The notes under the pieces are model-generated. The model was given only the letters and a program-made list of their open reading frames with translations. It was not told the DNA's origin and did not search any database. From Porphyrobacter sp. (GTDB taxonomy: Bacteria; Pseudomonadota; Alphaproteobacteria; Sphingomonadales; Sphingomonadaceae), in the NCBI GenBank assembly GCA_027533455.1, contig JAPZUC010000001.1, forward strand, positions 248,001 to 312,000: 64,000 nucleotides of DNA, written 5' to 3'. This document shows positions 40,541 through 56,870 of this stretch, in pieces. Both the position numbers and the translations under genes were made by a program. Every line of letters begins with the position of its first letter. Positions within the stretch are counted from its first letter, which is position 1.

Positions 40541-40580
40541 GATCCGGGTTTGACCCCTGCCAGACCCCCGTTAGACCCTC
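40541..40580 (-). repeat. helically phased GGGTC repeat array beside parS site 2
   Basis: Read outward from parS on the minus strand, four units GGGTCTAACGG, GGGTCTGGCAG, GGGTCAAACCC and GGATCAAGG follow each other. The GA dinucleotides on the plus strand are at 40541, 40552, 40563 and 40574, exactly 11 bp apart. A closely similar array lies beside parS site 3. It is in non-coding sequence between convergent genes. Confidence 0.75.
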
Positions 40581-40602
40581 TTTGGCAGGCCTTCGCAGCC
40601 GG

Positions 40603-40618
40603 TGTTTCACGTGAAACT
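40603..40618. promoter_or_regulatory. parS site 2
   Basis: TGTTTCACGTGAAACT matches the parS consensus at 15 of 16 positions, with the central 14-bp palindrome intact. It is in the 138-bp gap between mnmA and a convergent gene. Confidence 0.88.
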
Positions 40619-40635
40619 CGCCGGGCGAGGAGAAA

Positions 40636-40989
40636 TCAGCCCTCCCAGGGCTCCAGCACGCAGCCATACCCCTCGCGGTAGGTCGCGGTGGCCTGAGCGA
40701 CCAACGGGAAACGGGCCGTGACGCTGCTGGTCTCGTCATCATCAACGAGGGTCACAGCCTCCATGCCGGCAAGCTTGTCCTTGCGGCAATCCTCAAGGCT
40801 GCGGCCCGCAACATAGCGACAGGAACAGGCAACCCGCGCCGAATAGGCAGAGGCGATGCCACCGTAACCTTTGATTTCACTACGGAAAGCAAGGGCCGCC
40901 CCGCCCACGCCCAGCGCGATGATCGCCAGCACCCACAGCCCCCAGCGCTTCCGGGGTCCGGTGCGTGCCGGTGCGGGTGATTTCGCCAT
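40636..40989 (-). CDS. hypothetical protein with one membrane anchor and periplasmic cysteines
   Basis: This 117-residue protein has a basic N-terminus, one membrane segment (WGLWVLAIIALGVGGAALAF, about 17-36) and a periplasmic part with four cysteines (CSCRYVAGRSLEDC, YGCVLEP) that could form disulfides. No family name is recognised. It diverges from a serine-hydrolase lipoprotein gene 35 bp away. ATG 40989 has AAGG upstream; an in-frame TTG at 40995 is less likely. Confidence 0.7.
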   Translation of the reverse strand: MAKSPAPARTGPRKRWGLWVLAIIALGVGGAALAFRSEIKGYGGIASAYSARVACSCRYVAGRSLEDCRKDKLAGMEAVTLVDDDETSSVTARFPLVAQATATYREGYGCVLEPWEG

Positions 40990-41024
40990 TGCCAAGCCTT
41001 CATGCTTCGGGGAATGAGAGCGCG

Positions 41025-42164
41025 ATGACCCTCAACGCCGCCGTCCTTAACCGCGCGAACATCCTCGCGCCAGCCCTGCTGTTGCTCGCCGGTTGCGGCT
41101 CCGCGCCCGCTGCCGAAAAGCCGTTGTCCGAAGAAGCGCGCGCCGCTGTCACCAAGGACGCAGGCGCCCCCAGAGACCAGCTCGCGCGGCAGATCGATGA
41201 TCTGTTCACGGCCGAAGGCCTCGGCGAAACGCGCGCGGTGGTGGTGATGGCGAACGGCAAGCTTGCCGCCGAACGCTACGCCCCGGGTTACGATAGGGAC
41301 ACCCGCTTCATCAGCTGGTCTATGGCCAAGACCGTCACCGGCGTATTGATCGGGATGCTGGTGTCGGACGGGCTGCTGGCGCTGGATGCACCTACCCCTG
41401 TCCCACTGTGGCAGCGCCCCGGCGATCCGCGCGGCGAGATCACCCTGCGCCACCTGCTCCAGATGCGTAGCGGCCTCCGCCACACCGAGGCCGGCGATCC
41501 GCCGTACGAATCCTCCGAGGTGCGGATGCTGTTCCTCGACGGGCGCGACAATATGGCCAAGTGGGCCGAGGAGCAGCCGCTGGAGGCGGAGCCCGGCAAG
41601 CAGTTCGAATATTCCTCGAACACCAGCGTCATCCTTGCCGACATCGCCGCGCGCGCACTGACCGCCAGCGACAAGCCCGAGGCGCGACGCAAGGCGGTGG
41701 CGGATTACCTGCAAGTGCGCCTGTTCGGCCCGCTCGGCATGACCAGCATGGTGCCCGAATTCGACGCGTCGGGCACGCTGATCGGCGGCAGCCTGATGCA
41801 CGCCACCGCGCGCGACTGGGCGAAGCTGGGCGAGTTCCTGCGGCTGAAAGGCCGCGCCCCCGGCGGCGAACAGCTCGTCCCGATCCGCTGGGTGGAAGCG
41901 ATGGTGACGCCCTCACCCCGCAGTCCGCAATACGGCTTTCAGATCTGGCTCAACCGCCCGGTGCCCAAGAACGCGGAGTCCCCGCTATTCCCCGACCGCG
42001 CGCCCAAAAGCCTGTTCAGCCTCATCGGCCACATGGGCCAATATGTGCTGGTCTCGCCCAGCCAGCGGGTGACGCTGGTGCGGCTCGGTCACTCGGACAG
42101 CGAGCAGCGTCCGCCGATGCTGCAGCAAGCGGCGGACGTGATTGAATTGTATCCTCAGAGGTAG
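41025..42164 (+). CDS. class C beta-lactamase-family serine hydrolase, lipoprotein
   Basis: This 379-residue protein has a lipoprotein signal (LLLAGC) and the serine hydrolase fold with S-M-A-K in ISWSMAKTVTGVLIG, YSSN in QFEYSSNTSVILADIA (YxN-like) and GHMGQ near the C-terminus in place of KTG. The pattern is close to 6-aminohexanoate-dimer hydrolase and esterase EstB types rather than AmpC. The natural substrate is unknown. Its last 10 bp overlap the convergent PhzF gene. Confidence 0.87.
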   Translation: MTLNAAVLNRANILAPALLLLAGCGSAPAAEKPLSEEARAAVTKDAGAPRDQLARQIDDLFTAEGLGETRAVVVMANGKLAAERYAPGYDRDTRFISWSMAKTVTGVLIGMLVSDGLLALDAPTPVPLWQRPGDPRGEITLRHLLQMRSGLRHTEAGDPPYESSEVRMLFLDGRDNMAKWAEEQPLEAEPGKQFEYSSNTSVILADIAARALTASDKPEARRKAVADYLQVRLFGPLGMTSMVPEFDASGTLIGGSLMHATARDWAKLGEFLRLKGRAPGGEQLVPIRWVEAMVTPSPRSPQYGFQIWLNRPVPKNAESPLFPDRAPKSLFSLIGHMGQYVLVSPSQRVTLVRLGHSDSEQRPPMLQQAADVIELYPQR

Positions 42165-42961
42165 AAGCTTCCCTCGACCACGGTGACGCATGGGCCGCCG
42201 AGCCACGCCTTCTCGCCTTCGAGGCGCAAGGTGAGATCACCGCCGCGCGTGGACGCCTGATGCGCGGTGAAGCTGGTCCGCCCGAGGCGCTTGGCCCAAT
42301 ACGGGGTCAGCACCGCATAGGCCGATCCGGTGACGCTGTCCTCGTCCACTCCGCCGCCGGGCACGAAGACACGGCTGACGATGTCGGTCTTGTTGCCGGG
42401 CGCGGTGCAGATGAACTGGTCGGTCCCCAGCGCGCCAAGTCCGCGGATATCGGGATCGAGTGCGCGGATCGCGGCCTCGTTCTCGAACAGGAAGATGTTG
42501 TAGCGGCTGTCGTTGCGCCACACCTCGAGCGGCGGCGCGCCGAGCAGTGCGACCGCTTCGGGGTATTCGCCTGGCGCGGTGTGGATCGCCGGGAGCGCAA
42601 GTTCATAGGCGTCACCCGCCTTCACGACTTCGAGGATACCCGATTTGCGAGTGCGGAAGGTGATCCGTTCAAGTGTCCGACCCTCGGCGTCCCGCGTCAA
42701 CAGGATATGCCCGCTGGCCAGCGTCGCATGGCCGCACAGCGCGATTTCATAGGTGGGGGTGCACCAGCGCAGCTCCCAATCGGCCTCACCGGTAGCATCG
42801 CGCACGACGAAGGCGGTCTCGGCGAAGAGGTTTTCGCCGCCGATCTGCACCAGCACATCGTCAGGCAGCCATTCATCGAGCACCATCACCGCCGCCTGGT
42901 TCCCGCCAAAGGGTTGCGCGGCGAAGGCATCGACATGCCAATAGGGGATTCTCTGGGGCAT
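42155..42961 (-). CDS. PhzF-family isomerase
   Basis: This 268-residue protein has the PhzF/diaminopimelate-epimerase-like double barrel. Features are HVDAFAAQPFGGNQAAVMVL, the catalytic glutamate in NLFAETAFVV, CGHATLASGH and a C-terminal GGVDEDSVTGSAYAVL (usually EDPATGSA). Most members are not phenazine enzymes and have unknown substrates. AAGGACG precedes the start. pdxH lies 11 bp upstream in the same direction, so the pair is co-transcribed. Confidence 0.92.
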   Translation of the reverse strand: MPQRIPYWHVDAFAAQPFGGNQAAVMVLDEWLPDDVLVQIGGENLFAETAFVVRDATGEADWELRWCTPTYEIALCGHATLASGHILLTRDAEGRTLERITFRTRKSGILEVVKAGDAYELALPAIHTAPGEYPEAVALLGAPPLEVWRNDSRYNIFLFENEAAIRALDPDIRGLGALGTDQFICTAPGNKTDIVSRVFVPGGGVDEDSVTGSAYAVLTPYWAKRLGRTSFTAHQASTRGGDLTLRLEGEKAWLGGPCVTVVEGSFYL

Positions 42962-42972
42962 CGGGGACGTCC

Positions 42973-43629
42973 TTATGGATAGAGCAGCGTGTCGGACCAG
43001 GGGGCGTCCGGCGCGCTGCGGATGAATTCGCGGCGGTCATGCAGCCGGTTGTCGCGATCGATCCAGAATTCGATTCTTGTCGGGGTCAAAGTAAAACCGG
43101 TCCAGTGCGGTGGGCGCGGCACCTGGCCTTCCGCCTCGTGCGCGGCCCAGAGTTCCTGCACGCGGTCGAGATATTGCTGGCGTTCCGGCAAGGGACGCGA
43201 CTGGTCGCTGGCGGCGCTGCCGACCTGGCTCTTGTAGGGGCGCGAGTGGAAATAGGCGTCGGCACGTTCCGGCGAGACCTCGGTCAGCGGACCTTCGATG
43301 CGAATCTGGCGGCGCAGGCTTTTCCAGTGGAACAGCAAGGCTGCCTGCATATTGGCGCGGATATGCGTGCCCTTGCGGCTCTCGGCATTGGTGAAGAAGG
43401 TGAAGCCGCCCCCTTCGATCTCGCCCTTCCCATGCCCCTTCAGTAGCACCATCCGCACAGAGGGCGCCGCGTCCGCCGTCGCCGTAGCGAGCGCCATCGC
43501 ATTGGGATCGTTCAACTCTCCCACCTGCGCGGCAGCAAACCATTCCTCGAACAGCACGAACGGATCGGCGCCTGCGGGCAGAACGCTATCGGCCAGCTGG
43601 GCATCATCGAGTGGGGTGGCATCGGACAT
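42973..43629 (-). CDS. pdxH: pyridoxamine 5'-phosphate oxidase
   Basis: This 218-residue FMN enzyme makes pyridoxal 5'-phosphate. FMN and substrate motifs are SVRMVLLKGHGKG, FFTNAESRKGTHI, AALLFHWKSLRRQIRIEG and SQVGSAASDQSRPL. The usual C-terminal RLNP reads LLYP, a small deviation. It is the first gene of a two-gene unit with phzF. Confidence 0.96.
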   Translation of the reverse strand: MSDATPLDDAQLADSVLPAGADPFVLFEEWFAAAQVGELNDPNAMALATATADAAPSVRMVLLKGHGKGEIEGGGFTFFTNAESRKGTHIRANMQAALLFHWKSLRRQIRIEGPLTEVSPERADAYFHSRPYKSQVGSAASDQSRPLPERQQYLDRVQELWAAHEAEGQVPRPPHWTGFTLTPTRIEFWIDRDNRLHDRREFIRSAPDAPWSDTLLYP

Positions 43630-43734
43630 CGGAAGGTTCCTAGGCGGAAGTTGGATGGGTCAGATAGTTACGCACCCGGCCCAGCGAAAGGCGCATATGA
43701 TTAACATCGCTTTTCAGTCGACGAGGGTCACGGG

Positions 43735-43763
43735 TTGCACTGAACGACTGTCTCACCTAGCTA
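43735..43763 (+). promoter_or_regulatory. promoter of the DnaJ-like gene, predicted leaderless
   Basis: TTGCAC (43735-43740) and TAGCTA (43758-43763) are 17 bp apart. The -10 ends 7 nt before ATG 43771, and there is no Shine-Dalgarno sequence in between, so the mRNA probably starts at or next to the start codon. Confidence 0.5.
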
Positions 43764-43770
43764 ACTCACC

Positions 43771-44766
43771 ATGCGCGATCTTTATTCCTTGCTCGGAATA
43801 CCCCGCACGGCCTCCGAGGCCGACATCAAGAGCGCCTATCGCAAGCTCGCAAAGGAGTTGCATCCCGATCGCAACAAGGACAAGCCCAACGCGTCGGAGA
43901 AATTTTCCGAAGTGACGCGCGCCTATGATCTGCTGTCGGACAAGGCCAAGCGCGCGCAGTATGACCGGGGCGAGATCGACGCTGACGGCAATCCCGCCAA
44001 TCCCTTTGCGGGCATGGGCGGACGGCCCGGTTACGGGCGCGGCGGCACTTATGGCGCTGGCCCCGGCGGCGGGCCGGGAAATGGCGGCGATTTCGGCGGC
44101 TACGGCGGAGACGAAATCGATCTTGGCGACTTGTTCGAGGGCCTGTTCGGCGGACGCAAGAACCCGCAGCAGCAGGCCGGTGCGCGGCGCGGCTTTGGTC
44201 GCCAGCCCCCACCGCCCCCGCCCAAGCGCGGCGCGGATATCCAATACCGGCTCGCGGTGCCCTTCGCCGAGGCTGCCGCCGGGCGCGACCAGCGCATTAC
44301 CCTCGCCGATGGCAAGGCCATCAACCTCAAGCTCCCCGCAGGGGTCGAGGACGGCACGATGATGCGCCTCAAGGACAAGGGCCATCCCGGCACTGGTGGC
44401 AATGGTGACGGGATCGTCATGGTCGAGGTCGGCGGGCATCCCTTCTTCCGGCGCGAAGGCGACAATATCCGCATGGACCTGCCCGTCACGCTCGACGAGG
44501 CGCTGCGCGGAGCCAAGGTCAAATGCCCGACAGTCGACGGCGCGGTGATGCTAACGCTCAAGCCCGGAACATCCAGCGGCACCGTCATGCGGCTCGCCGG
44601 CAAGGGCTGGACCAAGAAGAGCGGCCAGTCCGCCGACGGCAAGGCCGAACGGGGCGACCAGCTGGTGACAATAGAGATCCAGTTGCCTGCCGATCTGGCG
44701 GACTTGGAACAACGGCTCGATGGCTGGGTTGACACCGCCCGCCCGCGCGAAAAGTTCGGGCTCTGA
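43771..44766 (+). CDS. DnaJ/CbpA-type J-domain chaperone
   Basis: This 331-residue type II J-protein has an N-terminal J domain with HPD (LHPDRNKD), a Gly-rich linker (about 77-130, repeats of GG and GY), a Pro run (PPPPPP) and two C-terminal substrate domains. There is no CxxCxGxG zinc region, so it is CbpA-like rather than canonical DnaJ. It would stimulate DnaK ATPase. Translation appears leaderless. It is followed by yihY, fabI and an epimerase gene on the same strand with small gaps. Confidence 0.93.
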   Translation: MRDLYSLLGIPRTASEADIKSAYRKLAKELHPDRNKDKPNASEKFSEVTRAYDLLSDKAKRAQYDRGEIDADGNPANPFAGMGGRPGYGRGGTYGAGPGGGPGNGGDFGGYGGDEIDLGDLFEGLFGGRKNPQQQAGARRGFGRQPPPPPPKRGADIQYRLAVPFAEAAAGRDQRITLADGKAINLKLPAGVEDGTMMRLKDKGHPGTGGNGDGIVMVEVGGHPFFRREGDNIRMDLPVTLDEALRGAKVKCPTVDGAVMLTLKPGTSSGTVMRLAGKGWTKKSGQSADGKAERGDQLVTIEIQLPADLADLEQRLDGWVDTARPREKFGL

Positions 44767-44791
44767 CGCCCCTTCGCGAAAGGCCGCAGCC

Positions 44792-45685
44792 ATGACTGGA
44801 ACCGATATCCCGCCCGACCCTGAAGCGGGCGCGGCATCGCGCGTCTGGGAGGTGGCCAAAAAGGTCGCGGTCGATACCTTCAATGACGGCTTCATCCACG
44901 CCGGCAACCTTGCCTATCTGTCGATGCTGGCAATCTTCCCCTTCTTCATTCTCGGCGCGGCGCTGTTCGATGTCATCGGCGGGCGCGACAATGCCCAGGC
45001 CCTGATCTTCTCGGTCGCGCAGGCGATGCCGGAATCCGTGGCCGAGACCATCGTGCCGGTCGCCGAGGACGTGATCTACGCCCGTTCGGGCTGGCTCCTG
45101 TGGGTCGGGGGCGCGGTTGGCCTGTGGACCGTATCGAGCCTGATCGAGACGATCCGCGATATCTTGCGCCGTGCCTATGGCGCCAGGAGCAGCACCGTCT
45201 TCTGGAAGACCCGGCTCGTCTCGGCGGGGTTCATTCTCGGCGCGGTCATCACGCTGATGCTGTCGCTGTTTACGCAGGTCCTGATCGGGGGCGCACAGGA
45301 GGTCATACTGGCCGCGTTCCCTCAGCTGGGGGAATGGATCGACACGCTCAGCCTGTCGCGGATCGTGCCGGCACTGGGTCTGGCGCTATCGCTGTGGGTG
45401 CTGTTCCTTACCCTTACCCCGCCCGGCTATCGGGGCCGGCAGTCGCCCAAGTGGCCGGGCGCGCTGTTTACCGCGGCGTGGTGGCTGACGGTCGCAGCTG
45501 CCCTGCCGGTGGTGCTGCGCAGCGCCTTCACATATGATCTCACCTACGGCAGCCTTGCCGGAAGCATGGTGACACTGCTGTTTTTCTGGCTTGTGGGGCT
45601 CGGCCTCGTTATCGGCGCGGAATTGAACGCGGCGCTGGCACAAGAGTCGGCACCATCGGCGGGGCTTACCGAGGAGAAAGCGTGA
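44792..45685 (+). CDS. YihY/BrkB-family inner-membrane protein
   Basis: This 297-residue protein has five or six membrane segments and family motifs FIHAGNLAYLSMLAIFPFFI, GLWTVSSLIETIRDILRRAYG and YDLTYGSLAGSMVTLLFFWLVGLGLVIGAELNA, given here in part. Early annotation as ribonuclease BN is wrong; function is not established. AAAGG precedes ATG 44792. It abuts fabI with no gap. Confidence 0.9.
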   Translation: MTGTDIPPDPEAGAASRVWEVAKKVAVDTFNDGFIHAGNLAYLSMLAIFPFFILGAALFDVIGGRDNAQALIFSVAQAMPESVAETIVPVAEDVIYARSGWLLWVGGAVGLWTVSSLIETIRDILRRAYGARSSTVFWKTRLVSAGFILGAVITLMLSLFTQVLIGGAQEVILAAFPQLGEWIDTLSLSRIVPALGLALSLWVLFLTLTPPGYRGRQSPKWPGALFTAAWWLTVAAALPVVLRSAFTYDLTYGSLAGSMVTLLFFWLVGLGLVIGAELNAALAQESAPSAGLTEEKA

Positions 45686-46492
45686 ATGAACGGATTGATG
45701 GCAGGCAAGCGCGGCCTCATCATGGGCCTTGCGAATGACAAGTCGCTGGCCTGGGGCATTGCCAAAAAGCTGGCAGAGCACGACGCTGAGCTGGCCTTCT
45801 CCTATCAGGGCGAGGCGCTGGCCAAGCGCGTGATCCCGCTCGCTGCCGAACTCGGCAGTGATTTCACCTTCGAATGCGACGTGTCGAGCATGGACTCGCT
45901 CGACGCCGCCTTTGCCGCGCTGAAGGAACGCTGGGACAGCCTCGACTTCGTGGTTCACGCGATCGGCTATTCCGACAAGAACGAGCTACGCGGGCACTAT
46001 GTCGACACCAGCCTCGAGAACTTCCTCAATACCATGAACATCTCGGCCTATTCGCTGGTCGCGATCAGCCAGCGCGCTGCGGCGATGATGCCGGAAAGCG
46101 GCGGGGCGATCCTGACGCTGAGCTACTACGGGGCGGAAAAGGTCGTGCCGCATTACAACGTCATGGGCGTCGCCAAGGCCGCGCTTGAGACGAGCGTGAA
46201 GTATCTCGCCAATGACCTCGGCCCGCGCAACATCCGCGTCAACGCAATCAGCGCCGGGCCGATCAAGACCCTCGCGGCGAGCGGGATCGGCGATTTCCGC
46301 TACATCCTGAAGTGGAACGAATACAACGCACCGCTACGGCGCAACGTCACCATCGACGATGTCGGCGGAGCAGGGCTTTATCTGCTGTCCGAGCTGTCCT
46401 CGGGCGTGACCGGCGAGACGCACCATGTCGATGCCGGCTACCACGTGGTCGGCATGAAGCAGGAAGACGCGCCGGACATCGCGCTCTCCTGA
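45686..46492 (+). CDS. fabI: enoyl-[acyl-carrier-protein] reductase (NADH)
   Basis: This 268-residue SDR completes each cycle of fatty-acid elongation. Cofactor motif GLIMGLANDKSLAWGIA, the YxxxxxxK-type site YNVMGVAKAALE and VNAISAGPIKTLA are typical. It is the triclosan and isoniazid-class target family. A GAGGAG ribosome site lies within the end of the upstream gene. Confidence 0.97.
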   Translation: MNGLMAGKRGLIMGLANDKSLAWGIAKKLAEHDAELAFSYQGEALAKRVIPLAAELGSDFTFECDVSSMDSLDAAFAALKERWDSLDFVVHAIGYSDKNELRGHYVDTSLENFLNTMNISAYSLVAISQRAAAMMPESGGAILTLSYYGAEKVVPHYNVMGVAKAALETSVKYLANDLGPRNIRVNAISAGPIKTLAASGIGDFRYILKWNEYNAPLRRNVTIDDVGGAGLYLLSELSSGVTGETHHVDAGYHVVGMKQEDAPDIALS

Positions 46493-46508
46493 GCCGCCCC
46501 GAGCCGAC

Positions 46509-47522
46509 ATGCGCACCGTCCTCGTCACCGGTTCGGCCGGGTTCATCGGCTACCATCTCTCGCAATTGCTGCTGGAGGAGGGCTTCGGCGTCGTCGGCTA
46601 TGACGGGATGACCGATTATTACGATGTGCGGATCAAGCAGCGGCGGCACCAGATGCTGCTCCAGCACCCGCATTTCAGCTGCACCGAGGGGATGCTGGAG
46701 GACTTCGACACGCTCCACGCACTGGTGCTGGCGGAGAAGCCCGATGTGATTGTCCACCTCGCCGCGCAGGCGGGAGTGCGTTACAGCCTCGAAAATCCGC
46801 GCGCCTATATCGACGCGAACCTCGTCGGCACCTTCAACGTCATGGAATGCGCGCGCGAGCTGAGCGTGGATCACCTGCTCATGGCGTCCACGTCCTCGGT
46901 CTATGGCGCGAACACCGAGATGCCGTTCCACGAGGGGCAGAAGGTCGACACCCCGCTCACCCTCTACGCCGCGACCAAGAAGGCGAACGAGGCGATGGCG
47001 CATTCCTACGCCCACCTCTGGAACCTGCCGACCACCATGTTTCGCTTTTTCACGGTCTATGGCCCGTGGGGGCGGCCTGATATGGCGCTGTTCAAGTTCA
47101 CGCGCGGGATCCTCGAAGGGACGCCGATCGACATCTACAATGATGGCGAGATGTACCGCGATTTCACCTATGTCGCCGATCTGGTGCGCGGCATCCGCCT
47201 GCTGATCGACACGGCGCCTGTCCGTCCCGAGAGCCCCGAGGACATTGCCGAGGGCGACAGCCTGTCGCCTGCCGCGCCGTTCCGGGTGGTCAATATCGGC
47301 AATGGCGACAAGGTGCGGCTGATGGACTTCATCACCGCGATCGAGGCCGAATGCGGACGGGAAGCGGTTAAGAACTTCATGCCGATGCAGATGGGCGATG
47401 TGCCCGCAACCTGGGCCGATGCGTCGCTGCTCAAGTCCCTCACCGGCTACGCCCCGCAGACCCCGTTCCACGAAGGCGTCGCGAAATTCGTGGCGTGGTA
47501 CCGGGAATATTACCGGATCTGA
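46509..47522 (+). CDS. UDP-glucuronate 4-epimerase-like NAD-dependent epimerase
   Basis: This 337-residue extended SDR has VLVTGSAGFIGYHL, STSSVYG, YAATKKANEAMAHSYAHLW (YxxxK) and RDFTYVADLVRGI. Sequence style and length match UDP-GlcA 4-epimerases that make UDP-galacturonate for surface polysaccharide. Other polysaccharide genes are absent nearby. The ribosome site is weak; the gene follows fabI by 16 bp. Confidence 0.9.
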   Translation: MRTVLVTGSAGFIGYHLSQLLLEEGFGVVGYDGMTDYYDVRIKQRRHQMLLQHPHFSCTEGMLEDFDTLHALVLAEKPDVIVHLAAQAGVRYSLENPRAYIDANLVGTFNVMECARELSVDHLLMASTSSVYGANTEMPFHEGQKVDTPLTLYAATKKANEAMAHSYAHLWNLPTTMFRFFTVYGPWGRPDMALFKFTRGILEGTPIDIYNDGEMYRDFTYVADLVRGIRLLIDTAPVRPESPEDIAEGDSLSPAAPFRVVNIGNGDKVRLMDFITAIEAECGREAVKNFMPMQMGDVPATWADASLLKSLTGYAPQTPFHEGVAKFVAWYREYYRI

Positions 47523-47525
47523 CGC

Positions 47526-49207: not shown

Positions 49208-50569
49208 TCAGGGCTTGGCCGGACGGGACGCGGGGCGCAGCGCCACCGTGCTCTTTGTGGTGCGGCGCAAGGTCTCCATCGCGTAGTTCAGCTGGAAGTC
49301 CTTGATGCCCTGCTTTTCAAGCTGCGCCGCGGTCAGCTGGAAACGCGGATCGGCGACCTTGTCGGCCTCCATTTCCTCGTCCTTGATGCCGAGCTCGTTG
49401 ATGAGGTGGCCGCGCAGGTCGCTTTCGCGGGTCTGGTACTTCTGGCGCAACAGGAAGTCAGGATCGGAGATCTGCGGCACGGCGATGTCGGGCTTGATCC
49501 CGCCTTCCTGCACCGAGCGGCCCGAAGGCGTGAAATAACGCGCCGTCGTGAGCTTTAGCGCGGCGTCCTTGCCGAGCGGGAGGAGCGACTGGACCGAGCC
49601 CTTGCCGAAGCTGCGCTCGCCCATGATCAGCGCGCGGCGGTGATCCTGCAGCGCGCCCGCAACGATTTCCGAAGCCGAGGCCGAGCCTGCGTTGATCAGC
49701 ACGATCATCGGCACGCCTTCGGCCATGTCGCCGCGATAGACGGTCTCGGCATCGTACAGCATCGTCTCGCCCCGCGCGCGACCGCGCTGGCTGACGATGC
49801 GGCCATTGCTGAGGAACAGGTCGGACAGCGCCACCGATTCGTCGAGGCTCCCGCCCGGGTTATTGCGCAGGTCGAGCACCAGCCCGCTGATGCGCCCCCC
49901 CGGCGCCTTCTTCCTGAGCGCCTGCCATTCCTCGAACACGTTCGCACCGACATTGGCGGAGAATTCGTTGACGGTAATGATTCCGATATTGCCGGCGGCG
50001 AGTTCCGAGGTGACCGGCTCCAGCTCGATCACACCGCGCGTGACATCAAGCTCGAGCGGCTCTTCGCGGCCCTGACGGTAGATGGTCAGGCGAATCGATG
50101 TGCCCTTGGGCCCGCGCATCTGCGCCACCGCGTCGTCCAGCTTGGTGTCGACGATCAGCTTGCCATCGATATGCGTGATGAAATCGCCGGCCTTGACGCC
50201 TGCGGTCTCCGCCGGGCTGCCACGGAACGGGGAGACGACCTTGACCGCGCCATCCTCCATCACGACGGAAAGGCCGAGGCCCGAATACTTGCCGTCGATC
50301 ATCGTCTCCATCCGCTGGAGATCGCCGCCGTCGAGATAGGCGGAGTGCGGATCGAGCGAGGCAAGCATCCCGTCGATCGCGCCGCGAATCAGCTTCTCGT
50401 CGTCGACCGGCTCGACATAGCTTGCCTTGACCCGCTGCATCACCGCGATGAACTTGGCGAACTCAGGCCCCACACGGCCATCGACCTGCGCCATGGTGGC
50501 GGTGGTGGCGGGGATCAGCGCCACGGCGGTGACCAGGGCTGCGCTTTGCAGGAGAGCGGCGATCTTCAT
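49208..50569 (-). CDS. ctpA: C-terminal processing peptidase (S41 family)
   Basis: This 453-residue exported protease has a signal peptide, a PDZ domain (about 90-175, GLGLSVVMEDGAVKVVSPF) and the S41 catalytic domain with the serine in NAGSASASEIVAGAL and lysine in GERSFGKGSVQ. It may process periplasmic or cell-wall enzymes. The envC gene is immediately upstream, as often seen. AAGGAG lies 10 nt from the start. Confidence 0.95.
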   Translation of the reverse strand: MKIAALLQSAALVTAVALIPATTATMAQVDGRVGPEFAKFIAVMQRVKASYVEPVDDEKLIRGAIDGMLASLDPHSAYLDGGDLQRMETMIDGKYSGLGLSVVMEDGAVKVVSPFRGSPAETAGVKAGDFITHIDGKLIVDTKLDDAVAQMRGPKGTSIRLTIYRQGREEPLELDVTRGVIELEPVTSELAAGNIGIITVNEFSANVGANVFEEWQALRKKAPGGRISGLVLDLRNNPGGSLDESVALSDLFLSNGRIVSQRGRARGETMLYDAETVYRGDMAEGVPMIVLINAGSASASEIVAGALQDHRRALIMGERSFGKGSVQSLLPLGKDAALKLTTARYFTPSGRSVQEGGIKPDIAVPQISDPDFLLRQKYQTRESDLRGHLINELGIKDEEMEADKVADPRFQLTAAQLEKQGIKDFQLNYAMETLRRTTKSTVALRPASRPAKP

Positions 50570-50699
50570 GGGGGGAGAGGCTCCTTTGAACGCGAATGTA
50601 TAGGTTTGCCGAGCTTAACGCCAGATAGACACGCGCAGGCGACCAATCGTGATCCGGAAGGGGACAGGCATCAAGGCAAACCTCACCGGCGCGGCAGGT

Positions 50700-51938
50700 C
50701 TATCGCAGATATTGCAGCGGATTGACCGGCTGGCCGTCGCACCGCAGCTCGATTGTCACCGGAGTCGCTCCGCCACCCGCACGGCCGATGGGGGAACCGC
50801 CGATCACGTTGTCGCCAACACTGGCATCCACCCGCTCAAGTCCTGTGACGAGGCTGGTCCAGCCGCCCGCGTGCTCGATGATGACGATTCGCCCGAAGCC
50901 GCGATAGCTGCCCGCGAAGGCCACCCGCCCGCGCGCCGGAGCGACAACCTGTGCGCCTTGGGCCGGAGCCAGCGTCAAGCCGGTCGAGGCGAGTCCGCTG
51001 TCCCGCTTGGCACCGAACCCCACCAGGGTCCGGCCTTGTACCGGCAGCTGGAAATCGCGCGGCGGCGGTGCGCTGGGCGGAGCAGTGGAGGCTGCTTCGG
51101 GGGCAGCGGGCAAGGCGGCGGCCAGATCCTTCGGACGCAGCACCGGCCCCGGCAGTGCGGCCAGTTCGCGCCGCAACGTTGCCACCTCACCGAGCTTGTC
51201 GACCAGCCCGTCGAGATCGCGCGCTTCTTCGGCCAGCGCCAGCGCACGCTCGGCCTCGCGCAGGGCGGCACCCTTGGCGGCGCGCGATGCGAGGCGCTGC
51301 TTCTGTTCGAGCGCAGCGAGCTGGGCGCGGCGCTGGCGCAGATCGGCCTCCCCGCCCCGCAATTGCTCTACTGCCTGCGCAGCCTGCGCCTCCAGCGCAC
51401 GGCCCCGATCAAGATCGGCACGCAGCGCGGCGGTGCGAGCGCGGATTTGCGGAACGGCGCTCGCCATTACCGCGCGGACGTGGACAACGTCCTGCAGTGA
51501 TCCGGGCTGCAACGCGGACAGCGCCAGCGGGCGGCGCGAGGCGGTCTGGAGCGCGGCGGCAAGGCGCGCGGTCGGCTCCTGCTTGGCGGCGAGCCGGGCC
51601 GTCAGGCGCGCACGCTGTGATTTCGCGATCGCAAGCTTCGCACGGGCGACTTCCACGTCGGCCTCCGCCTGCTGGATACGCGCAGCGAGTGCGGCGGCCT
51701 CGCTGGCGGTGCGCTGGGCAGCTTCAGTGGCGGCTTCGGCCTCGGCGGTGAGCTTTGACGCGCGGCCCTCGGCCAGCTTGCTCTCGCGGGTGGCGCGGGC
51801 AAGCGCCGCTTCGGCCTCGTCCGCTTCGATCGGCGGGGTGACCTGCGCCGCTTCGGTCTCGGGCAAGGCGAAAGCCAGCGCCGAAATAACGCCGCATACG
51901 GCCAGAAAGGTCAGGATCGTGGGGCGGCGAGGCATCAT
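50700..51938 (-). CDS. EnvC-like murein hydrolase activator
   Basis: This 412-residue exported protein has a signal peptide or anchor, a long coiled coil (about 40-270, rich in Ala, Glu and Arg) and a C-terminal LytM/M23 domain. The LytM zinc ligands are missing: HxxxD reads STGLTLA and HxH reads IELRC. This fits EnvC, which activates amidases without cutting peptidoglycan. I chose ATG 51938, 7 bp from the rlmH stop; a longer frame would overlap rlmH. Confidence 0.9.
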   Translation of the reverse strand: MMPRRPTILTFLAVCGVISALAFALPETEAAQVTPPIEADEAEAALARATRESKLAEGRASKLTAEAEAATEAAQRTASEAAALAARIQQAEADVEVARAKLAIAKSQRARLTARLAAKQEPTARLAAALQTASRRPLALSALQPGSLQDVVHVRAVMASAVPQIRARTAALRADLDRGRALEAQAAQAVEQLRGGEADLRQRRAQLAALEQKQRLASRAAKGAALREAERALALAEEARDLDGLVDKLGEVATLRRELAALPGPVLRPKDLAAALPAAPEAASTAPPSAPPPRDFQLPVQGRTLVGFGAKRDSGLASTGLTLAPAQGAQVVAPARGRVAFAGSYRGFGRIVIIEHAGGWTSLVTGLERVDASVGDNVIGGSPIGRAGGGATPVTIELRCDGQPVNPLQYLR

Positions 51939-51945
51939 CTTGCGG

Positions 51946-52368
51946 TCATGCCCGATGATAGGGATGGCCTGCAAGGATCGTGGTGGCGCGGTAGAGCTGC
52001 TCCATCAACATCGCGCGGGCCATCATATGCGGCCAGGTGGCGGGGCCGAAGGCGAGGAGCAGGTCGGCCGAGGCGCGTTCGGCATCGGAATGCCCGTCCG
52101 CCGCGCCCAGCATGAAACGGGTTTCGCGCACGCCTTCGTCACGCCAGCGGCCCAGCAGAATGGCGAAGGCCTCCGACGACATGGCCTTCCCCCGCTCGTC
52201 GAGCAGGACAGTGCGGCAGGGATTGAGCGGCTGACCCACCTTCCCCGCGCCGGTATCAGGCCATTCGGTAAGCTGGCAGGGCCAGGTCATGCGCTTGGCA
52301 TAGCGATCCACCAGGTCGCCCTCAGGCGACCGGCCAATCTTCCCGCGCGCGATGATGTGGAGGAGAAT
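51946..52368 (-). CDS. rlmH: 23S rRNA pseudouridine-1915 N3-methyltransferase, probable ATT start
   Basis: This 140-residue SPOUT methyltransferase modifies helix 69 of 23S rRNA. It has LLHIIARGKIGRSPEGDLVDRY at the N-terminus, LLDERGKAMSSEAFA, FMLGAADGH and the C-terminal knot (MMARAMLMEQLYRA). Homologues begin one residue before LLHIIARGK. There is no ATG, GTG or TTG there; the codon is ATT (52366-52368) with GGGG and GAGAG upstream. A TTG start at 52443 is open but would add 25 residues encoded by a dispersed repeat, so I consider ATT more likely. Confidence 0.9.
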   Translation of the reverse strand: MLLHIIARGKIGRSPEGDLVDRYAKRMTWPCQLTEWPDTGAGKVGQPLNPCRTVLLDERGKAMSSEAFAILLGRWRDEGVRETRFMLGAADGHSDAERASADLLLAFGPATWPHMMARAMLMEQLYRATTILAGHPYHRA

Positions 52369-52387
52369 CTCTCTAACCCCGATGAAG

Positions 52388-52504
52388 CGGACTGGACCGG
52401 GCCGCAGGCCCGCAAGGCCGACCGGCCGCCCGCAGGCACTCAAGCCCGCAGGGCTTGAAACGCGCCGAGGACGCTCGCCCGGATGGGCGAACGCACAACA
52501 AGCT
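52388..52504 (-). repeat. dispersed structured repeat, copy B
   Basis: It fills the gap between rsfS and rlmH. It contains hairpins TCGCCC-ggat-GGGCGA (52475-52490), CAAGCCC-gca-GGGCTTG (52441-52457) and CGGGCC-gca-GGCCCG (52398-52412). The 23 bp at 52410-52432 are identical (reverse complement) to copy A, and blocks at 52465-52478 and 52427-52436 are shared with copy C. Confidence 0.7.
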
Positions 52505-52940
52505 AATTTCTACCCAACATCGACGTTTCCGATCCCTCGAACGACCACATGCGTTCAAGGTTGTAGAAGGTGCGCACTTCGGGGCGGAACAGGTGGATGA
52601 CCACGTCGCCTGCATCGATCAGCACCCAATCTGCAGCCGGCAGACCTTCAAGCCGGACATGGCCGAAGCCTGCCTTCTTGATCGCCTCGGCAAGCTTCTG
52701 CGCCATCGACGCGACCTGACGGGTCGAACGTCCGCTGGCGATCACCATGTGATCGGCAATCGAGCTTTTCCCTTCGAGCAGGATCGAGACAATGTCCTGC
52801 GCCTGATCATCATCAAGCTGCGACATCACGAGCGCGTGCAACGCGGCGGCGCTCATGTCAGAGCGCACCAGCGACTGGGCCGTTTTGGCGGCAGCTTGCA
52901 CCGCACCAAGCGGCATGGAAGCGGCGAGGGCTTCGGTCAT
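52503..52940 (-). CDS. rsfS: ribosomal silencing factor RsfS
   Basis: This 145-residue protein binds L14 of the 50S subunit and blocks subunit joining during starvation. The family core is ADHMVIASGRSTRQVASMAQ, WVLIDAGDVVIHLF and RTFYNLERMW. The ATG at 52940 is poorly spaced (14 nt) from GGAG, while an in-frame TTG at 52946 is at 8 nt, so either may be used. It lies between nadD and rlmH, the usual order. Confidence 0.93.
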   Translation of the reverse strand: MTEALAASMPLGAVQAAAKTAQSLVRSDMSAAALHALVMSQLDDDQAQDIVSILLEGKSSIADHMVIASGRSTRQVASMAQKLAEAIKKAGFGHVRLEGLPAADWVLIDAGDVVIHLFRPEVRTFYNLERMWSFEGSETSMLGRN

Positions 52941-53030
52941 CGACAATCACGTATCTCCAGAGTTCAGGGCTAAGGAAGCGGGCATTACGCAAACCGGCCA
53001 ACAAGGCTGCCGAAACGCGTACCACGCGCC

Positions 53031-53696
53031 TCATGCGTCCTCCTCGGGCCGGATTATGCGGAATGTCAGCCGATCACGCACCGCCACATCACGATCCTTG
53101 CCGAGCAAAGCCTCGGCCCACCCGGCATTGGCACGGCGGAGTGCCGTGGCCGAGCGGTGGTCTGGATCGAAACGCAGTAACACCAGGGCCGGTGCGCTCC
53201 ATTGCCCCCGTTTCCGAATGCTGGCCGCAGGGACACGATAGCGCCTGAGCCAGACCATGGCGGGGCTCGCCATAGCGGTTCCATCATAGCCGGGGCGGGC
53301 GATCACCGCAATCGGCATTGTCCGCGCGAGCCTCCGCCAGTCCTTCCAGCGGTGCAGCTGGGCGAGATTATCGCTGCCCATCAGCCACACGAACCGACGC
53401 TTGGGGTAACGCCGGACAAGCCTGGCAAGGGTATCGACGGTGTAGCGCGTGCCGAGCTGCTGCTCGATTGCGGTGGGCACGATTCGCGCACGGCGGGCCT
53501 GCTGGCGGGCCGACATCAGCCGCGCTTTCAGGGGCGCCATTCCGGCCTGCGATTTCAACGGATTGCCCGGGGAAACCAGCCACCACGCCTCGTCCAGCCC
53601 CAGCGCGTCGAGCGCAAAGAGCGTGATCCGCCGGTGCCCGCCATGCGCGGGATTGAAGCTGCCGCCGAGAAGGCCGGTGAGGACAGGGATACTCAA
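53031..53696 (-). CDS. nadD: nicotinate-nucleotide adenylyltransferase
   Basis: This 221-residue enzyme makes deamido-NAD. The nucleotidyltransferase motif GLLGGSFNPAHGGHRRI is at the N-terminus, and WLMGSDNLAQLHRWKDW and SATALRR (SSTxIR-like) follow. No ATG precedes the motif. TTG 53696 overlaps the proA stop (TTGA), giving coupled translation. A much longer open frame upstream is non-coding. Confidence 0.93.
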   Translation of the reverse strand: MSIPVLTGLLGGSFNPAHGGHRRITLFALDALGLDEAWWLVSPGNPLKSQAGMAPLKARLMSARQQARRARIVPTAIEQQLGTRYTVDTLARLVRRYPKRRFVWLMGSDNLAQLHRWKDWRRLARTMPIAVIARPGYDGTAMASPAMVWLRRYRVPAASIRKRGQWSAPALVLLRFDPDHRSATALRRANAGWAEALLGKDRDVAVRDRLTFRIIRPEEDA

Positions 53697-54982
53697 GGGC
53701 GGGTCTGGCCCTGCCCTCGCACCTGCCACTTGTAGGTCGTCAGCCCCTCGAGCGCGACGGGCCCGCGCGCATGGAGCCGTCCGGTGGCAATACCGATCTC
53801 CGCTCCCAGCCCGAACTCGCCCCCGTCGGCAAATTGCGAGGAGGCATTGTGCATCACGATGGCGCTGTCGACTTCGGTCAGGAAACGCTCGGCCACAGCC
53901 GAGTCGCTTGTCACGATTGCATCGGTATGCGCGGAGGAATAGCGGGCGATGTGGGCGAGTGCGTCTTCCAGCCCGTCGACGATGGCAACCGAGGCAATCG
54001 AATCGAGATACTCGGTGTCCCAATCGTCGGCGCTGGCCGGGATGACGCGCGGATCGAGCGCCTGCGCCCGGCCATCGCCACGTACTTCGCAGCCTGCTTC
54101 GATCAGCGCTGCCACCACCGCGGCGGCAGCAGGGAAGGCTGCGTCGATCAGCAGCGTCTCCATTGATCCGCAGATGCCGGTGCGACGCAGCTTGGCATTC
54201 ACGGCGATGGCCTTTGCCATGTCAGGCTCGGCGGCGGCGTGGACATATGTGTGGTTGATCCCGTCGAGATGCGCGAGCACCGGCACCCGGGCATCGGCCT
54301 GCACCCGCGCGACAAGGCTCTTGCCACCGCGCGGCACGATCATGTCGATGAGGCCGCTGGCAGTCAGCATCGCGCCCACACAGGCGCGGTCCTGCGAGGG
54401 GACAAGCTGCACCGCCTCTGCCGGGACACCGCCCGCGACCAGCCCTTCGACCAGCGCGGCGTGGATCGCGCGGTTGGAATGCACCGCCTCGCTCCCCCCG
54501 CGCAGCAAGGCGGCATTTCCCGCGCGCACGCACAAGGCGGCGGCGTCGGCAGTCACATTGGGGCGGCTTTCGTAGATGATCCCGATCGTGCCGATGGGCA
54601 CACGGATGCGCTGGAATTTCAACCCGTTGGGACGTTCGGAGGCGTCTATCACCTGCCCGACGGGATCGGGCAGATCGGCCACGGCATCGACCGCCTCGGC
54701 AATCCCCGCCAGCCGCGCTTCATCAAGCGCCAGCCGGTCCAGCATCGCGCCCGAAAGCCCGCGCGCCTTGCCCGCTGCAAGGTCCTCGGCATTTGCTGCC
54801 AGCACCGCCGGCATCGCCGCCCGCAGCGCGTCGGCCGCAAGGTGGAGCGCGGCCGCGCGGGCGTTGCTCGGCATCGCCGCAAGCTGGCGCTGGGCCAGCC
54901 GCGCGTCCCTGGCGAGCGCTGTCACCAGCGCCTGCGCGTCAAGGGCTGTGGCTTGGGTGGAGGGCGGGGTCATGTGATTCAT
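53693..54982 (-). CDS. proA: gamma-glutamyl phosphate reductase
   Basis: This 429-residue enzyme makes glutamate semialdehyde for proline synthesis. It shows IYESRPNVTADAAALC, LRGGSEAVHSN, the catalytic cysteine in RRTGICGSMETLL and EIGIATGRLHARGPV. ATG 54982 has AAGG at 7 nt. proB is not adjacent. The gene leads the run proA-nadD-rsfS-rlmH-envC-ctpA. Confidence 0.96.
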   Translation of the reverse strand: MNHMTPPSTQATALDAQALVTALARDARLAQRQLAAMPSNARAAALHLAADALRAAMPAVLAANAEDLAAGKARGLSGAMLDRLALDEARLAGIAEAVDAVADLPDPVGQVIDASERPNGLKFQRIRVPIGTIGIIYESRPNVTADAAALCVRAGNAALLRGGSEAVHSNRAIHAALVEGLVAGGVPAEAVQLVPSQDRACVGAMLTASGLIDMIVPRGGKSLVARVQADARVPVLAHLDGINHTYVHAAAEPDMAKAIAVNAKLRRTGICGSMETLLIDAAFPAAAAVVAALIEAGCEVRGDGRAQALDPRVIPASADDWDTEYLDSIASVAIVDGLEDALAHIARYSSAHTDAIVTSDSAVAERFLTEVDSAIVMHNASSQFADGGEFGLGAEIGIATGRLHARGPVALEGLTTYKWQVRGQGQTRP

Positions 54983-55026
54983 CGCGGGGCCTTCTAGCAC
55001 CCCGGCCCGCCGCTGTCAGGCCATGC

Positions 55027-55148
55027 GAATCGGCGCACGCATCAGCGATTCGCTCTCGCAAAAGCCGGTGCGGCGCATAGGGCCAGCGAGCGATGATCAA
55101 CTCGCCGCGATTCCAATTCATTTCACCTGCGTGACTGACTTAGGATTC
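55027..55148. promoter_or_regulatory. cluster of four GANTC sites in a divergent promoter region
   Basis: GANTC, the CcrM methylation site, occurs at 55027, 55047, 55109 and 55144 in the 229-bp gap between proA and the M23/bactofilin genes. About one would be expected by chance. Methylation state at such sites times transcription in the alphaproteobacterial cell cycle. Confidence 0.5.
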
Positions 55149-55211
55149 GACCATAGGTGAGCGCCCTGATAGCGGCGCCACGGGGCATCATAACACAATC
55201 GGGGCGGCAAT

Positions 55212-56384
55212 TTGTCATTCAGGAATACCGCACAGGCGTGGGGCGACCGGCTTCGACAGTGGTTCCCCGACCGCGAATTCTTCATGCGTGCCGATGGTCA
55301 GGTGCGCTTCATCAAGGTTTCGTCGAAACTCCAGATGCGCGTCGCCGGCGGGGTGTTCGCGGCTGCCTTCCTGTGGCTCGTCGCGCTCGGTGTTATGGCC
55401 TGGAGCCAGTACCGTGCCGAAGCCGATCTTGCCTCCTTCGTCGAGGAAAAGGCGCGGGTCGCAAAGGCTGGTGAACGTCTGAAGGCCTATGGCGGCAACC
55501 TCGACAAAGTGGTGGGCGATCTCAAGCAGCGCCAGGATTTCCTCGAGGAAATGGCGCAAATGCTGCCCGAGGACATGGTCAAGGAAGGCGGGGCGAACGG
55601 CACTGTCACCGATTCGACCGCCGAAGCCAGCGAGACAGTGAAGAAGGTCAGCGCACTGATCCCGCAGGCCAAGGGCCTTGCCGAGGTTGAAGCCCGCCAG
55701 GTCGCCTTCGTGGAACGACTCACCCGCTTTGCCGATGCCCGGGCCCGCCGGGCTGAAGCGGCCATGCGCAAGCTCAACCTCGATCCCAAGTTCCTCAGCC
55801 GCGAAGCGCAGCAGGCGATGGGCGGCCCGTTCGAGGCAATTCTCGACGCCGACGACATCGACCCGCGCTTCGAGCGACTCGGCCTAAGCCTTGCGCGCAT
55901 GGCGGTGATGGAGCGCGCGCTTGACAGCATCCCGCAGGTCGTCCCGGCATCGGTCGAGAACATCACCTCGGGCTTCGGTTATCGCCGCGATCCTTTCAAC
56001 GGGCGCGGGGCGATGCACGCCGGGATCGACTTCAAGGGCGCGATGGGATCGCCGATATTTGCCGCTGCCGAGGGCCGCGTGACCTTTGCCGGATGGAAAT
56101 CCGGTTATGGGCAGGCGATCGAGATCACGCATGGTAACGGGATGTTGACCCGCTACGCCCACTTGTCGCGGATCGACGTGAAGGTCGGCCAGCCGGTTGC
56201 GGCCGGGGTCACCATCGGCGGGCTCGGCAGCACCGGACGCTCGACTGGGCCGCACCTGCATTTCGAAGTTCGCATCAATGATCGCGCGGTCAATCCGCGC
56301 CCGTTTCTGGAGGCTGCACCCGATGTTCTCAAGGAAGTCCGCCGAACCGGATCTGACAAGCCCGCCGCCCGCGCGGCCCGTTAA
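55212..56384 (+). CDS. M23 (LytM) peptidoglycan endopeptidase
   Basis: This 390-residue protein has a cytoplasmic N-terminus, one membrane segment (about 48-68, VFAAAFLWLVALGVMAW), a coiled-coil periplasmic region and a complete M23 domain with HAGIDF and HLHFEVR zinc ligands, so it should be active. It starts at TTG 55212; no ATG or GTG is available. The downstream bactofilin gene overlaps its 3' end by 62 bp, a pairing in which the bactofilin positions the peptidase for local wall growth. Confidence 0.92.
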   Translation: MSFRNTAQAWGDRLRQWFPDREFFMRADGQVRFIKVSSKLQMRVAGGVFAAAFLWLVALGVMAWSQYRAEADLASFVEEKARVAKAGERLKAYGGNLDKVVGDLKQRQDFLEEMAQMLPEDMVKEGGANGTVTDSTAEASETVKKVSALIPQAKGLAEVEARQVAFVERLTRFADARARRAEAAMRKLNLDPKFLSREAQQAMGGPFEAILDADDIDPRFERLGLSLARMAVMERALDSIPQVVPASVENITSGFGYRRDPFNGRGAMHAGIDFKGAMGSPIFAAAEGRVTFAGWKSGYGQAIEITHGNGMLTRYAHLSRIDVKVGQPVAAGVTIGGLGSTGRSTGPHLHFEVRINDRAVNPRPFLEAAPDVLKEVRRTGSDKPAARAAR

Positions 56385-56769
56385 CAGGAGCAGTTTCATG
56401 GCCTCTGGCTCGACCTTCTCGGTGATCGGCGCGGATGTGACGATCAAAGGCAATATCAGCGCCTCGGCCGATCTGCATATCGATGGTACGGTCGATGGTG
56501 ACATCACCTGCGCATCGCTGGTGCAGGGCGAGAAGAGCAGCATCAGCGGTGCCGTTGTCGCCGAAAGCGCGCGTCTGGCCGGCAAGGTGACGGGTTCGAT
56601 CACCGCACGCGAGCTGGTGATCCTCAAGACCGCCCGCATCGAAGGCGATGTCCATTATGATGCACTAACGATCGAACAGGGTGCCGAAGTCGACGGGCGT
56701 TTCGCCCCCAATGCGCGTCAAGCGGTCAAGGCCGTGCCGAGCGCGCCGCGGATCGAAGCGGCCGAGTAA
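56323..56769 (+). CDS. bactofilin
   Basis: This 148-residue cytoskeletal protein has a short N-terminal tail (MFSRKSAEPDL), a right-handed beta-helix core (about 30-125: FSVIGADVTIKGNISASADL, GTVDGDITC, GSITARELVI, EGDVHYDALTI) and a disordered C-terminus. It polymerises without nucleotide and scaffolds wall enzymes. ATG 56323 is 9 nt from GGAGG and lies inside the peptidase gene. A shorter start at 56398 would remove the tail, which in relatives binds membrane. Confidence 0.92.
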   Translation: MFSRKSAEPDLTSPPPARPVNRSSFMASGSTFSVIGADVTIKGNISASADLHIDGTVDGDITCASLVQGEKSSISGAVVAESARLAGKVTGSITARELVILKTARIEGDVHYDALTIEQGAEVDGRFAPNARQAVKAVPSAPRIEAAE

Positions 56770-56790
56770 GCCCGCTCGCCCCCATCGCAA

Positions 56791-56806
56791 TGTTTCACGT
56801 GAAACC
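56791..56806. promoter_or_regulatory. parS site 3
   Basis: TGTTTCACGTGAAACC matches parS at 15 of 16 positions. It lies in the 118-bp gap between the bactofilin gene and a convergent acyl-CoA ligase gene. Confidence 0.88.
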
Positions 56807-56818
56807 CCCTCGCAGCAC

Positions 56819-56870
56819 GGGTCTGGAGGGGGTCTGACGGGGGGTCAAGGCGAGTCAAAGCGGGGTCTGG
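56819..56870 (+). repeat. helically phased GGGTC repeat array beside parS site 3
   Basis: Five GTC units (GGGTCTGGAGG, GGGTCTGACGG, GGGGTCAAGGC, GAGTCAAAGC, GGGGTCTGG) run outward from parS. The TC steps are at 56822, 56833, 56845, 56855 and 56866, spacings of 11, 12, 10 and 11 bp. Order and orientation relative to parS match the array at 40541-40580. Confidence 0.75.

What the first reader, a model, noticed from the sequence alone, without database searches (positions are those of the whole stretch)
40541..56870. Helically phased GGGTC arrays attached to two parS sites
Beside parS site 2 four GGGTC-type units occur at exactly 11-bp steps (40541, 40552, 40563, 40574). Beside parS site 3 five occur at 11, 12, 10 and 11 bp (56822-56866). 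In both cases the units read outward from parS in the same direction, start 16-28 bp from it and end before the convergent gene. Spacing of one DNA turn would put every unit on the same face of the helix, as for a cooperatively bound protein or a bent DNA segment. I know of no described parS-associated element of this form. It could be a loader or boundary for ParB spreading or SMC, an accessory segregation site, or an unrelated repeat.
Basis: partly seen in the sequence, partly recalled or inferred. Interest (0 to 1): 0.85.

Follow-up and report, generated by a model that had tools for sequence, protein, structure and literature searches.

The report
Chromosome-wide parS sites with phased arrays
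In one group of Erythrobacter-like bacteria, dozens of copies of the parS sequence, which elsewhere cluster near the replication origin, lie all around the chromosome, and most carry on one side only a row of short repeats spaced about one DNA turn apart and in fixed register with parS, which likely lets a still unidentified protein line up beside the segregation protein ParB.

Summary
Both arrays exist. The own genome has 68 parS-like palindromes (<=2 mismatches; reversed-pattern control 0), and 15 of its 17 GGGTC-triplet clusters sit beside one, in register. In two genomes examined site by site, arrays flank 32 of 43 and 46 of 55 dispersed parS sites but 0 of 15 origin-cluster sites, never on both sides. 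Units repeat every 10.9 bp, typically eight or nine times, phase-locked to parS across unrelated loci (P<=5e-5 per genome). In G003 the sites spread evenly from origin to terminus. Most arrays lie between convergent genes. Sites recur at orthologous positions, array on the same side in 32 of 32 testable groups. Some relatives use other units (CAAAGC) in the same slot. The 16 of 18 high-count genomes placed in a gene tree form one clade of one genus; 291 genomes of 95 other genera lack the GGGTC composite. Intrinsic bending, G-quadruplexes, RNA hairpins, MraZ, a second ParB and repeat copies were tested and not supported. Best explanation: a one-sided assembly platform joining ParB at parS to an unidentified head-to-tail DNA-binding protein. 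Binder and function are inferred. I found no description in print.

The parts
40603..40618 (.). parS palindrome of composite 2 (TGTTTCACGTGAAACT)
   Evidence: one mismatch
40534..40595 (-). phased array of composite 2: six units decoded on the minus strand, three perfect GGGTC (40552, 40563, 40574) and GGATC at 40541
   Evidence: row L023
39328..40497 (+). mnmA (tRNA 2-thiouridine synthase), array-side gene, 3' end faces the array
40636..40932 (-). short predicted gene without family match, parS-side, convergent
56791..56806 (.). parS palindrome of composite 3 (TGTTTCACGTGAAACC)
   Evidence: one mismatch
56819..56887 (+). phased array of composite 3: GGGTC at 56819, 56830, 56842, 56863 and GAGTC at 56852, then weaker CWRR-type units up to the stop of the next gene
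   Evidence: row L024
56398..56769 (+). bactofilin gene, parS-side, ends 21 bp before the parS 16-mer
56888..58501 (-). acyl-CoA ligase gene (AMP-binding), array-side, 3' end faces the array
4266..4281 (.). exact dispersed parS without array; GAAC about one turn from the parS half-site on its left; orthologous position occupied in G035, G023 and a third relative (L192)
18414..18429 (.). weak parS-like palindrome (2 mismatches), no array above threshold

Best explanation
The two arrays belong to a chromosome-wide family of composite elements, a parS-type palindrome with up to about nine ~11-bp units on one side in fixed helical register, which likely act as one-sided platforms where ParB bound at parS would meet a predicted head-to-tail DNA-binding protein lined up on one face of the helix. 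Shown by sequence: the composite, its one-sidedness, the 10.9-bp period, the register with parS, its usual place at gene 3' ends, its spread from origin to terminus (G003), its absence at the origin parS cluster (two genomes), and its conservation at orthologous positions in one clade. Inferred: that the canonical chromosomal ParB binds the dispersed palindromes (same core as the origin sites; no second ParB-family match in G003 or G011); that a sequence-specific protein reads each unit (unit wording differs between lineages while slot and phase stay); and that the array makes ParB loading or retention at such a site one-sided or confined, so that parS copies far from the origin are tolerated and used, for instance to place ParB or SMC between convergent genes.
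For: Register: 579 GGGTC in 171 array sides, vector strength 0.87 at 10.90 bp, peaks at 13.5, 24, 35, 46, 57, 68, 79, 90 bp from the parS core; for the CWRR core 0.60 on the array side (n=1284) and 0.10 on the other (n=455) (sides had been picked by unit count). Selected by parS: arrays at 32 of 43 (own genome) and 46 of 55 (G003) dispersed sites, 0 of 15 origin sites, 0 on both sides; a profile trained on other genomes fits best at shift 0 in 53 and +-1 in 25 of 78, shifts -5 to +5 tried; the same counts with the 18 training sides that resembled a test flank (>=60% identity) removed, register 0 in 49 and +-1 in 29. Within one genome, across different loci: strength 0.78 and 0.89, random shifts max 0.55 and 0.45 in 20,000; mean pairwise identity of array sides 0.32 and 0.37 (max 0.64), other sides 0.28 and 0.29, so not copies of a repeat. 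Orthologous sites: 53 groups, same side in 32 of 32 with two or more GGGTC arrays. Other wording in the same slot in G035. One clade. One genus. Gene ends: convergent 43 of 74 placed arrays versus 11 of 151 other intergenic gaps >=110 bp.
Against: No binding protein identified; MraZ and HTH_17 leads gave none. ParB binding at the dispersed sites is not shown. 20 of 98 dispersed sites in the two genomes passed no array threshold, although at least four (L061, L077, L092, L401) look by eye like weak or shifted arrays. Two GGGTC clusters lack parS. Arrays show no replichore polarity (22 away, 24 toward the origin), which a role in directed SMC travel might have predicted. Six high-count relatives have no GGGTC composite, and evidence for other units in three of them rests on few sites; their AT phase differs from that of GGGTC lineages (G035), is absent (G023) or rests on five sites (G010).
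Confidence: 0.5

Rival explanations
1. ParB itself occupies the array: units are weak, altered half-sites that hold ParB dimers in a row beside parS.
For: 9 of 20 array-less dispersed sites carry GAAC about one turn from the parS half-site, in L055 (and L295, L317 of relatives) as GTGGAAC, the complement of the half-parS GTTCCAC occupied by ParB in P. aeruginosa (PMC7022226 passages); long ParB stem in the clade (0.255 versus RsmH 0.064).
Against: GGGTCTRR does not resemble GTGAAAC; in G035 the AAA of the unit is about 3 bp out of the half-site register (own reading); GAAC on the array side in only 3 of 78.
Confidence: 0.13
2. The array is a DNA-wrapping or supercoil element (gyrase or topoisomerase IV type), placed between convergent genes where positive supercoils collect.
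For: Helical period, alternating AT/GC within each turn, convergent setting.
Against: Unit orientation and lineage-specific wording; no excess predicted bend (z 0.26, opposite side 0.43); AT phase differs in G035; fixed register to parS unexplained.
Confidence: 0.1
3. RNA-level element: a C-rich Rho loading site or terminator for the array-side gene.
For: Sense RNA of the array-side gene is C-rich there (26.7 C versus 14.0 G per 60 nt); the array-side gene's 3' end faces the array in 57 of 74.
Against: Register to a palindromic DNA site and a mean step near the helical repeat have no reason in RNA; TTTTT in only 4 of 78 and weak folding (mean z -0.75, 12 of 78 below -2); not found in other genera; at one G010 site the array is C-rich on the outward strand.
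Confidence: 0.09
4. G-quadruplex-forming repeats.
For: 25 of 78 arrays hold a G4 motif on the outward strand, 0 of 78 on the other side.
Against: All 53 arrays without the motif keep the register within +-1; TC and RR positions are conserved.
Confidence: 0.03
5. The dispersed palindromes are not ParB sites but targets of another regulator with the same palindrome, and the array is its second binding module.
For: Number and spread atypical for parS.
Against: Same core as the origin cluster; no second ParB-family match in G003 and G011; gene-end placement is unlike transcription control.
Confidence: 0.12

Closest known systems
Chromosomal parS sites (ParABS)
   Same: Core GTTTCACGTGAAAC, the same as in the origin cluster of the same genome.
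   Different: Reviews place the vast majority of parS within the 20% around oriC, with up to 20-23 copies near the origin (passages of PMC7022226 and PMC7333895); here 55 of 63 in G003 lie outside the cluster, evenly to the terminus, and 46 of the 55 carry an array.
Half-parS sites of Pseudomonas aeruginosa
   Same: Many ParB-type sites across the chromosome; a GTGGAAC half-site beside at least one array-less parS here.
   Different: Heptamers scattered in the genome (abstract of PMC10419367); no phased array is mentioned in what I saw.
BldC-type head-to-tail filaments on direct repeats
   Same: Asymmetric head-to-tail oligomer on direct repeats, binding sites of varying length (abstract of PMC5859096).
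   Different: Streptomyces regulator, no parS anchor; no HTH_17 match stood out as tracking the clade here.
MraZ boxes
   Same: Direct repeats about one turn apart (recalled).
   Different: The eight mraZ promoters printed carry TCCC/GGGA-type repeats, with or without arrays in the genome, not GGGTC.
Plasmid parC/iteron arrays (ParR, TubR; recalled)
   Same: Tandem ~11-bp units bound head to tail.
   Different: Plasmid centromeres without parS; here chromosomal, dispersed and parS-anchored.

Membership tests
Chromosomal parS | Palindrome matching the ParB site | tested here: met
Chromosomal parS | Clustered near oriC / parAB | tested here: not met
   55 of 63 sites of G003 outside the cluster, 28 of the 55 in the origin half
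Chromosomal parS | Bound by ParB, which spreads from it | not testable with these tools
   needs ChIP-seq
Second ParB-type system (Noc-like) | A ParB paralogue in every genome with dispersed sites | tested here: not met
   G003 and G011 (63 and 58 sites) have one match each
MraZ operator | Same motif as the mraZ promoter repeats | tested here: not met
   8 promoters printed
BldC/excisionase-type filament site | Cognate HTH_17 protein present across the clade | tested here: inconclusive
   20 genomes, matches not clustered by sequence; the best match of G003 and of G011 is weak and beside an integrase-like gene (by eye)
Dispersed repeat / MITE | Copies alike along their length | tested here: not met
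   mean pairwise identity 0.32 and 0.37, maximum 0.64
G-quadruplex element | Four G-runs in each copy | tested here: not met
   25 of 78
Intrinsic terminator | Stable hairpin followed by a U-tract | tested here: not met
   TTTTT in 4 of 78, mean folding z -0.75

The most novel reading that the evidence does not exclude
A clade of Erythrobacter has turned the centromere sequence into a chromosome-wide system: some 10-80 parS copies spread from origin to terminus, most of them, where examined, welded in fixed helical register to a nine-turn, one-sided landing strip for an undiscovered polymerising protein that partners ParB, with the strip's recognition word rewritten in concert in some lineages while its geometry was kept.
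Probability: 0.45. Interest if true: 0.93.

Novelty: categorically new. Interest (0 to 1): 0.86.

Why it matters
parS copies far from the origin are the exception (PMC7022226 passages), and in Caulobacter inserted ones are strongly disfavoured near mid-arm (PMC5815017 passages). A natural clade with dozens of conserved, evenly spread copies, most carrying a one-sided phased module that the origin copies lack, gives a direct way to ask how ParB loading, spreading and SMC recruitment are limited, and points to an unknown DNA-binding partner. Orthologous sites with different unit wording would be a natural experiment in how a DNA-binding specificity is replaced at many loci.

Tried and rejected
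MraZ as binder: TIGR00242 matches in 0 of the 12 GGGTC-composite relatives and the own genome, in 8 of the other 24 same-genus genomes, all under the family cut-off. But MraZ-like frames lie before rsmH in 16 of the 28 loci by eye, and the eight mraZ promoters printed of nine tried (seven from genomes with composites or dispersed parS, G022 among them; one from G009 with neither) carry TCCC/GGGA-type repeats, not GGGTC. HTH_17/BldC-like binder: in 20 genomes (12 high-count, 8 low) no match stood out; I did not cluster them, and looked only at the G003 and G011 loci. Extra ParB: not consistent. Replichore polarity: 22 versus 24. Even spacing beyond random: gap CV 0.83, P 0.11. Intrinsic curvature, wedge values recalled from memory: z 0.26 against 0.43 on the opposite side. 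G4, RNA hairpins and terminators. Common AT phase for all lineages: 7.7-7.8 in GGGTC lineages, 4.9 in G035, none in G023. Rfam: a tRNA and an sRNA in the window, neither at the arrays. Viral contigs: 25 matches to a loose pattern, 1 with parS and array above threshold. The composite left in G022 overlaps a CheA-like reading frame (named by eye), so no clue to a binder. Paper searches whose listings showed no description of this: (24, 46 and 69 list only part of their hits); the one paper found holds the term only in its reference list. One search was for BldC.
Full report
What is there. The window lies at C17:248001-312000 of a 2.88-Mb draft genome (G000, 17 contigs). Both arrays are as described, each with one degenerate unit.

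Not two sites but a family. The own genome has 68 places within two mismatches of TGTTTCACGTGAAACA, reversed control 0. GGGTC triplets form 17 clusters, control 0; 15 have a parS (<=2 mismatches) within 110 bp, all at the same spacing modulo one turn; C10:64411 and C13:308549 have none. The composite pattern GTGAAAC-N8..38-GGGTC-N5..7-GGGTC occurs in the own genome and 12 of 36 same-genus relatives, and in 0 of 24 genomes of other genera; the reversed control matched 2 places in the 61 genomes. A stricter form occurs in 3 of 298 genomes of the family, all among the 7 of this genus; 291 genomes of 95 other genera have none. These searches would not see arrays with other unit wording.

Register. 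From the loci then held, 213 distinct parS-like sites (core <=1 mismatch) were collected; 171 had an array by a unit count, 2 of them on both sides. The unit is GGGGTCTRRNN with a CWRR core. Decoded arrays have a median of 8 units, most often 9; steps were 11 (816), 10 (253), 12 (29), others 12 in all. The autocorrelation peaks at 11, 22, 32, 43, 54, 65 and 76, so the period stays near 10.9 bp over seven turns. GGGTC positions counted from the parS core are 13.5, 24, 35, 46, 57, 68, 79, 90; vector strength 0.87, n = 579. The signal ends about 100 bp from parS.

Test with sites chosen by parS. For the own genome I examined 50 of the 68 sites (43 dispersed, 7 in the origin cluster; one dispersed site, in L094, had been fetched because of its array) and for G003, a single-contig genome, all 63 (55 dispersed, 8 in the cluster). 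A positional profile trained on 136 array sides from other genomes was scored against 9,322 control flanks from the same loci; the threshold was their 99.9th percentile. Arrays: 32 of 43, 46 of 55, 0 of 7, 0 of 8; never both sides. All 78 arrays fit best within one base of the trained register. No training side was nearly identical (>=95%) to a test flank, and removing the 18 with >=60% identity gave the same counts. Because orthologous arrays could share ancestry, I also tested within each genome: across different loci the strength is 0.78 and 0.89, against maxima of 0.55 and 0.45 in 20,000 random shifts (side chosen by GGGTC count).

Place. In G003 the dispersed sites are spread from origin to terminus, 28 of 55 in the origin half; ParB lies at 948,580 beside the origin cluster. 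Of 78 arrays, 4 have their parS inside a predicted gene; of the other 74, 43 are between convergent genes and 57 have the array-side gene's 3' end facing the array; of 151 other gaps of at least 110 bp in the same loci, 11 are convergent. Gene calls come from a simple codon-usage caller that I wrote.

Conservation and change. With both neighbour genes shared (>=50% identity), 53 groups of orthologous sites formed, some of them origin-cluster sites; in all 32 groups with two or more GGGTC arrays the arrays are on the same side. In G035 the same kind of locus carries CAAAGC units, with AAAG about 15, 26, 36-37, 47-48 and 58-59 bp from parS, the slot that GGGTC fills elsewhere; for example L300 (G035) is orthologous to L170 and L202, which have GGGTC arrays. 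G023 has CAAC at about 14 and 25. These sets are small (20 and 15 sites) and many of their sites show no clear array. AT phase does not coincide between GGGTC lineages (7.7-7.8) and G035 (4.9), which speaks against a purely structural code.

History. Same-genus genomes split into 18 with 9 or more parS-like sites (own included) and 19 with 1-4. In an RsmH tree of 28 genomes (16 of the 18 high-count ones; G007 and G023 gave no RsmH) and a ParB tree of 30 genomes (9 high-count), the high-count genomes form one clade with G022 (3 sites, one composite left) nested inside. The ParB stem of the clade is 0.255 substitutions per site against 0.064 for RsmH in trees of the same 16 genomes (whole trees 2.91 and 1.64); printed supports were 0.41 and 0.47, so monophyly rests on two single-gene trees.

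Mechanism. One-sidedness, unit polarity, a fixed register to a known protein site, near-helical steps made of a 10/11 mix, and wording that differs between lineages at orthologous loci fit a head-to-tail protein assembly nucleated at, or stopped by, ParB. That is inference. The array is missing at the origin cluster, so it is probably not needed for ordinary centromere function; the simplest use is to limit or direct ParB at sites away from the origin. [quoted passage not shown] BldC shows that such filaments exist on direct repeats (PMC5859096 abstract). Livny et al. 2007 I saw only as cited in these. ParR, TubR, gyrase and MraZ biology is recalled.

Novelty. parS and direct-repeat arrays are each known. 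A chromosome-wide set of parS sites locked to a one-sided array appeared in none of the listings and 76 of the held open-access library (three of them capped); subscription papers and preprints were not searched. I rate it categorically new as an element; if the array proves to be just an accessory ParB site, 'new variant' would be right.

Noticed in passing
L055, L065, L074, L089, window 4266 (own genome); L355, L366, L391, L404 (G003): 9 of 20 array-less dispersed parS sites carry GAAC 6-8 bp beyond the parS core, i.e. about one turn from the half-site, against 0 of 15 origin sites and 3 of 78 array sides: possibly a second type of dispersed site.
   Followed up: partly
G000:C10:64411 (L007/L410) and G000:C13:308549 (L015/L411): Two GGGTC arrays without a recognisable parS within 110 bp; they may be relics or arrays working alone.
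   Followed up: partly
L409:3494-3507 (G022): A genome with only 3 parS-like sites keeps one composite inside a CheA-like reading frame; possibly an acquired chemotaxis gene.
   Followed up: partly
L321 (G010): A phased array whose outward strand reads TGACCCC, so GGGGTCA units point toward parS; the orientation rule may be broken there.
   Followed up: no
genomes G000-G060: MraZ is strongly divergent in this genus: 8 of 37 genomes match TIGR00242 at E<=1e-3, against all 24 genomes of other genera.
   Followed up: partly
L454 (IMGVR_UViG_3300034072_002201): One of 25 viral-contig matches carries a full composite; it could be host flank of a prophage.
   Followed up: no
window 1948-4254: A CDC48-family AAA ATPase gene ends 11 bp before the parS at 4266.
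   Followed up: no
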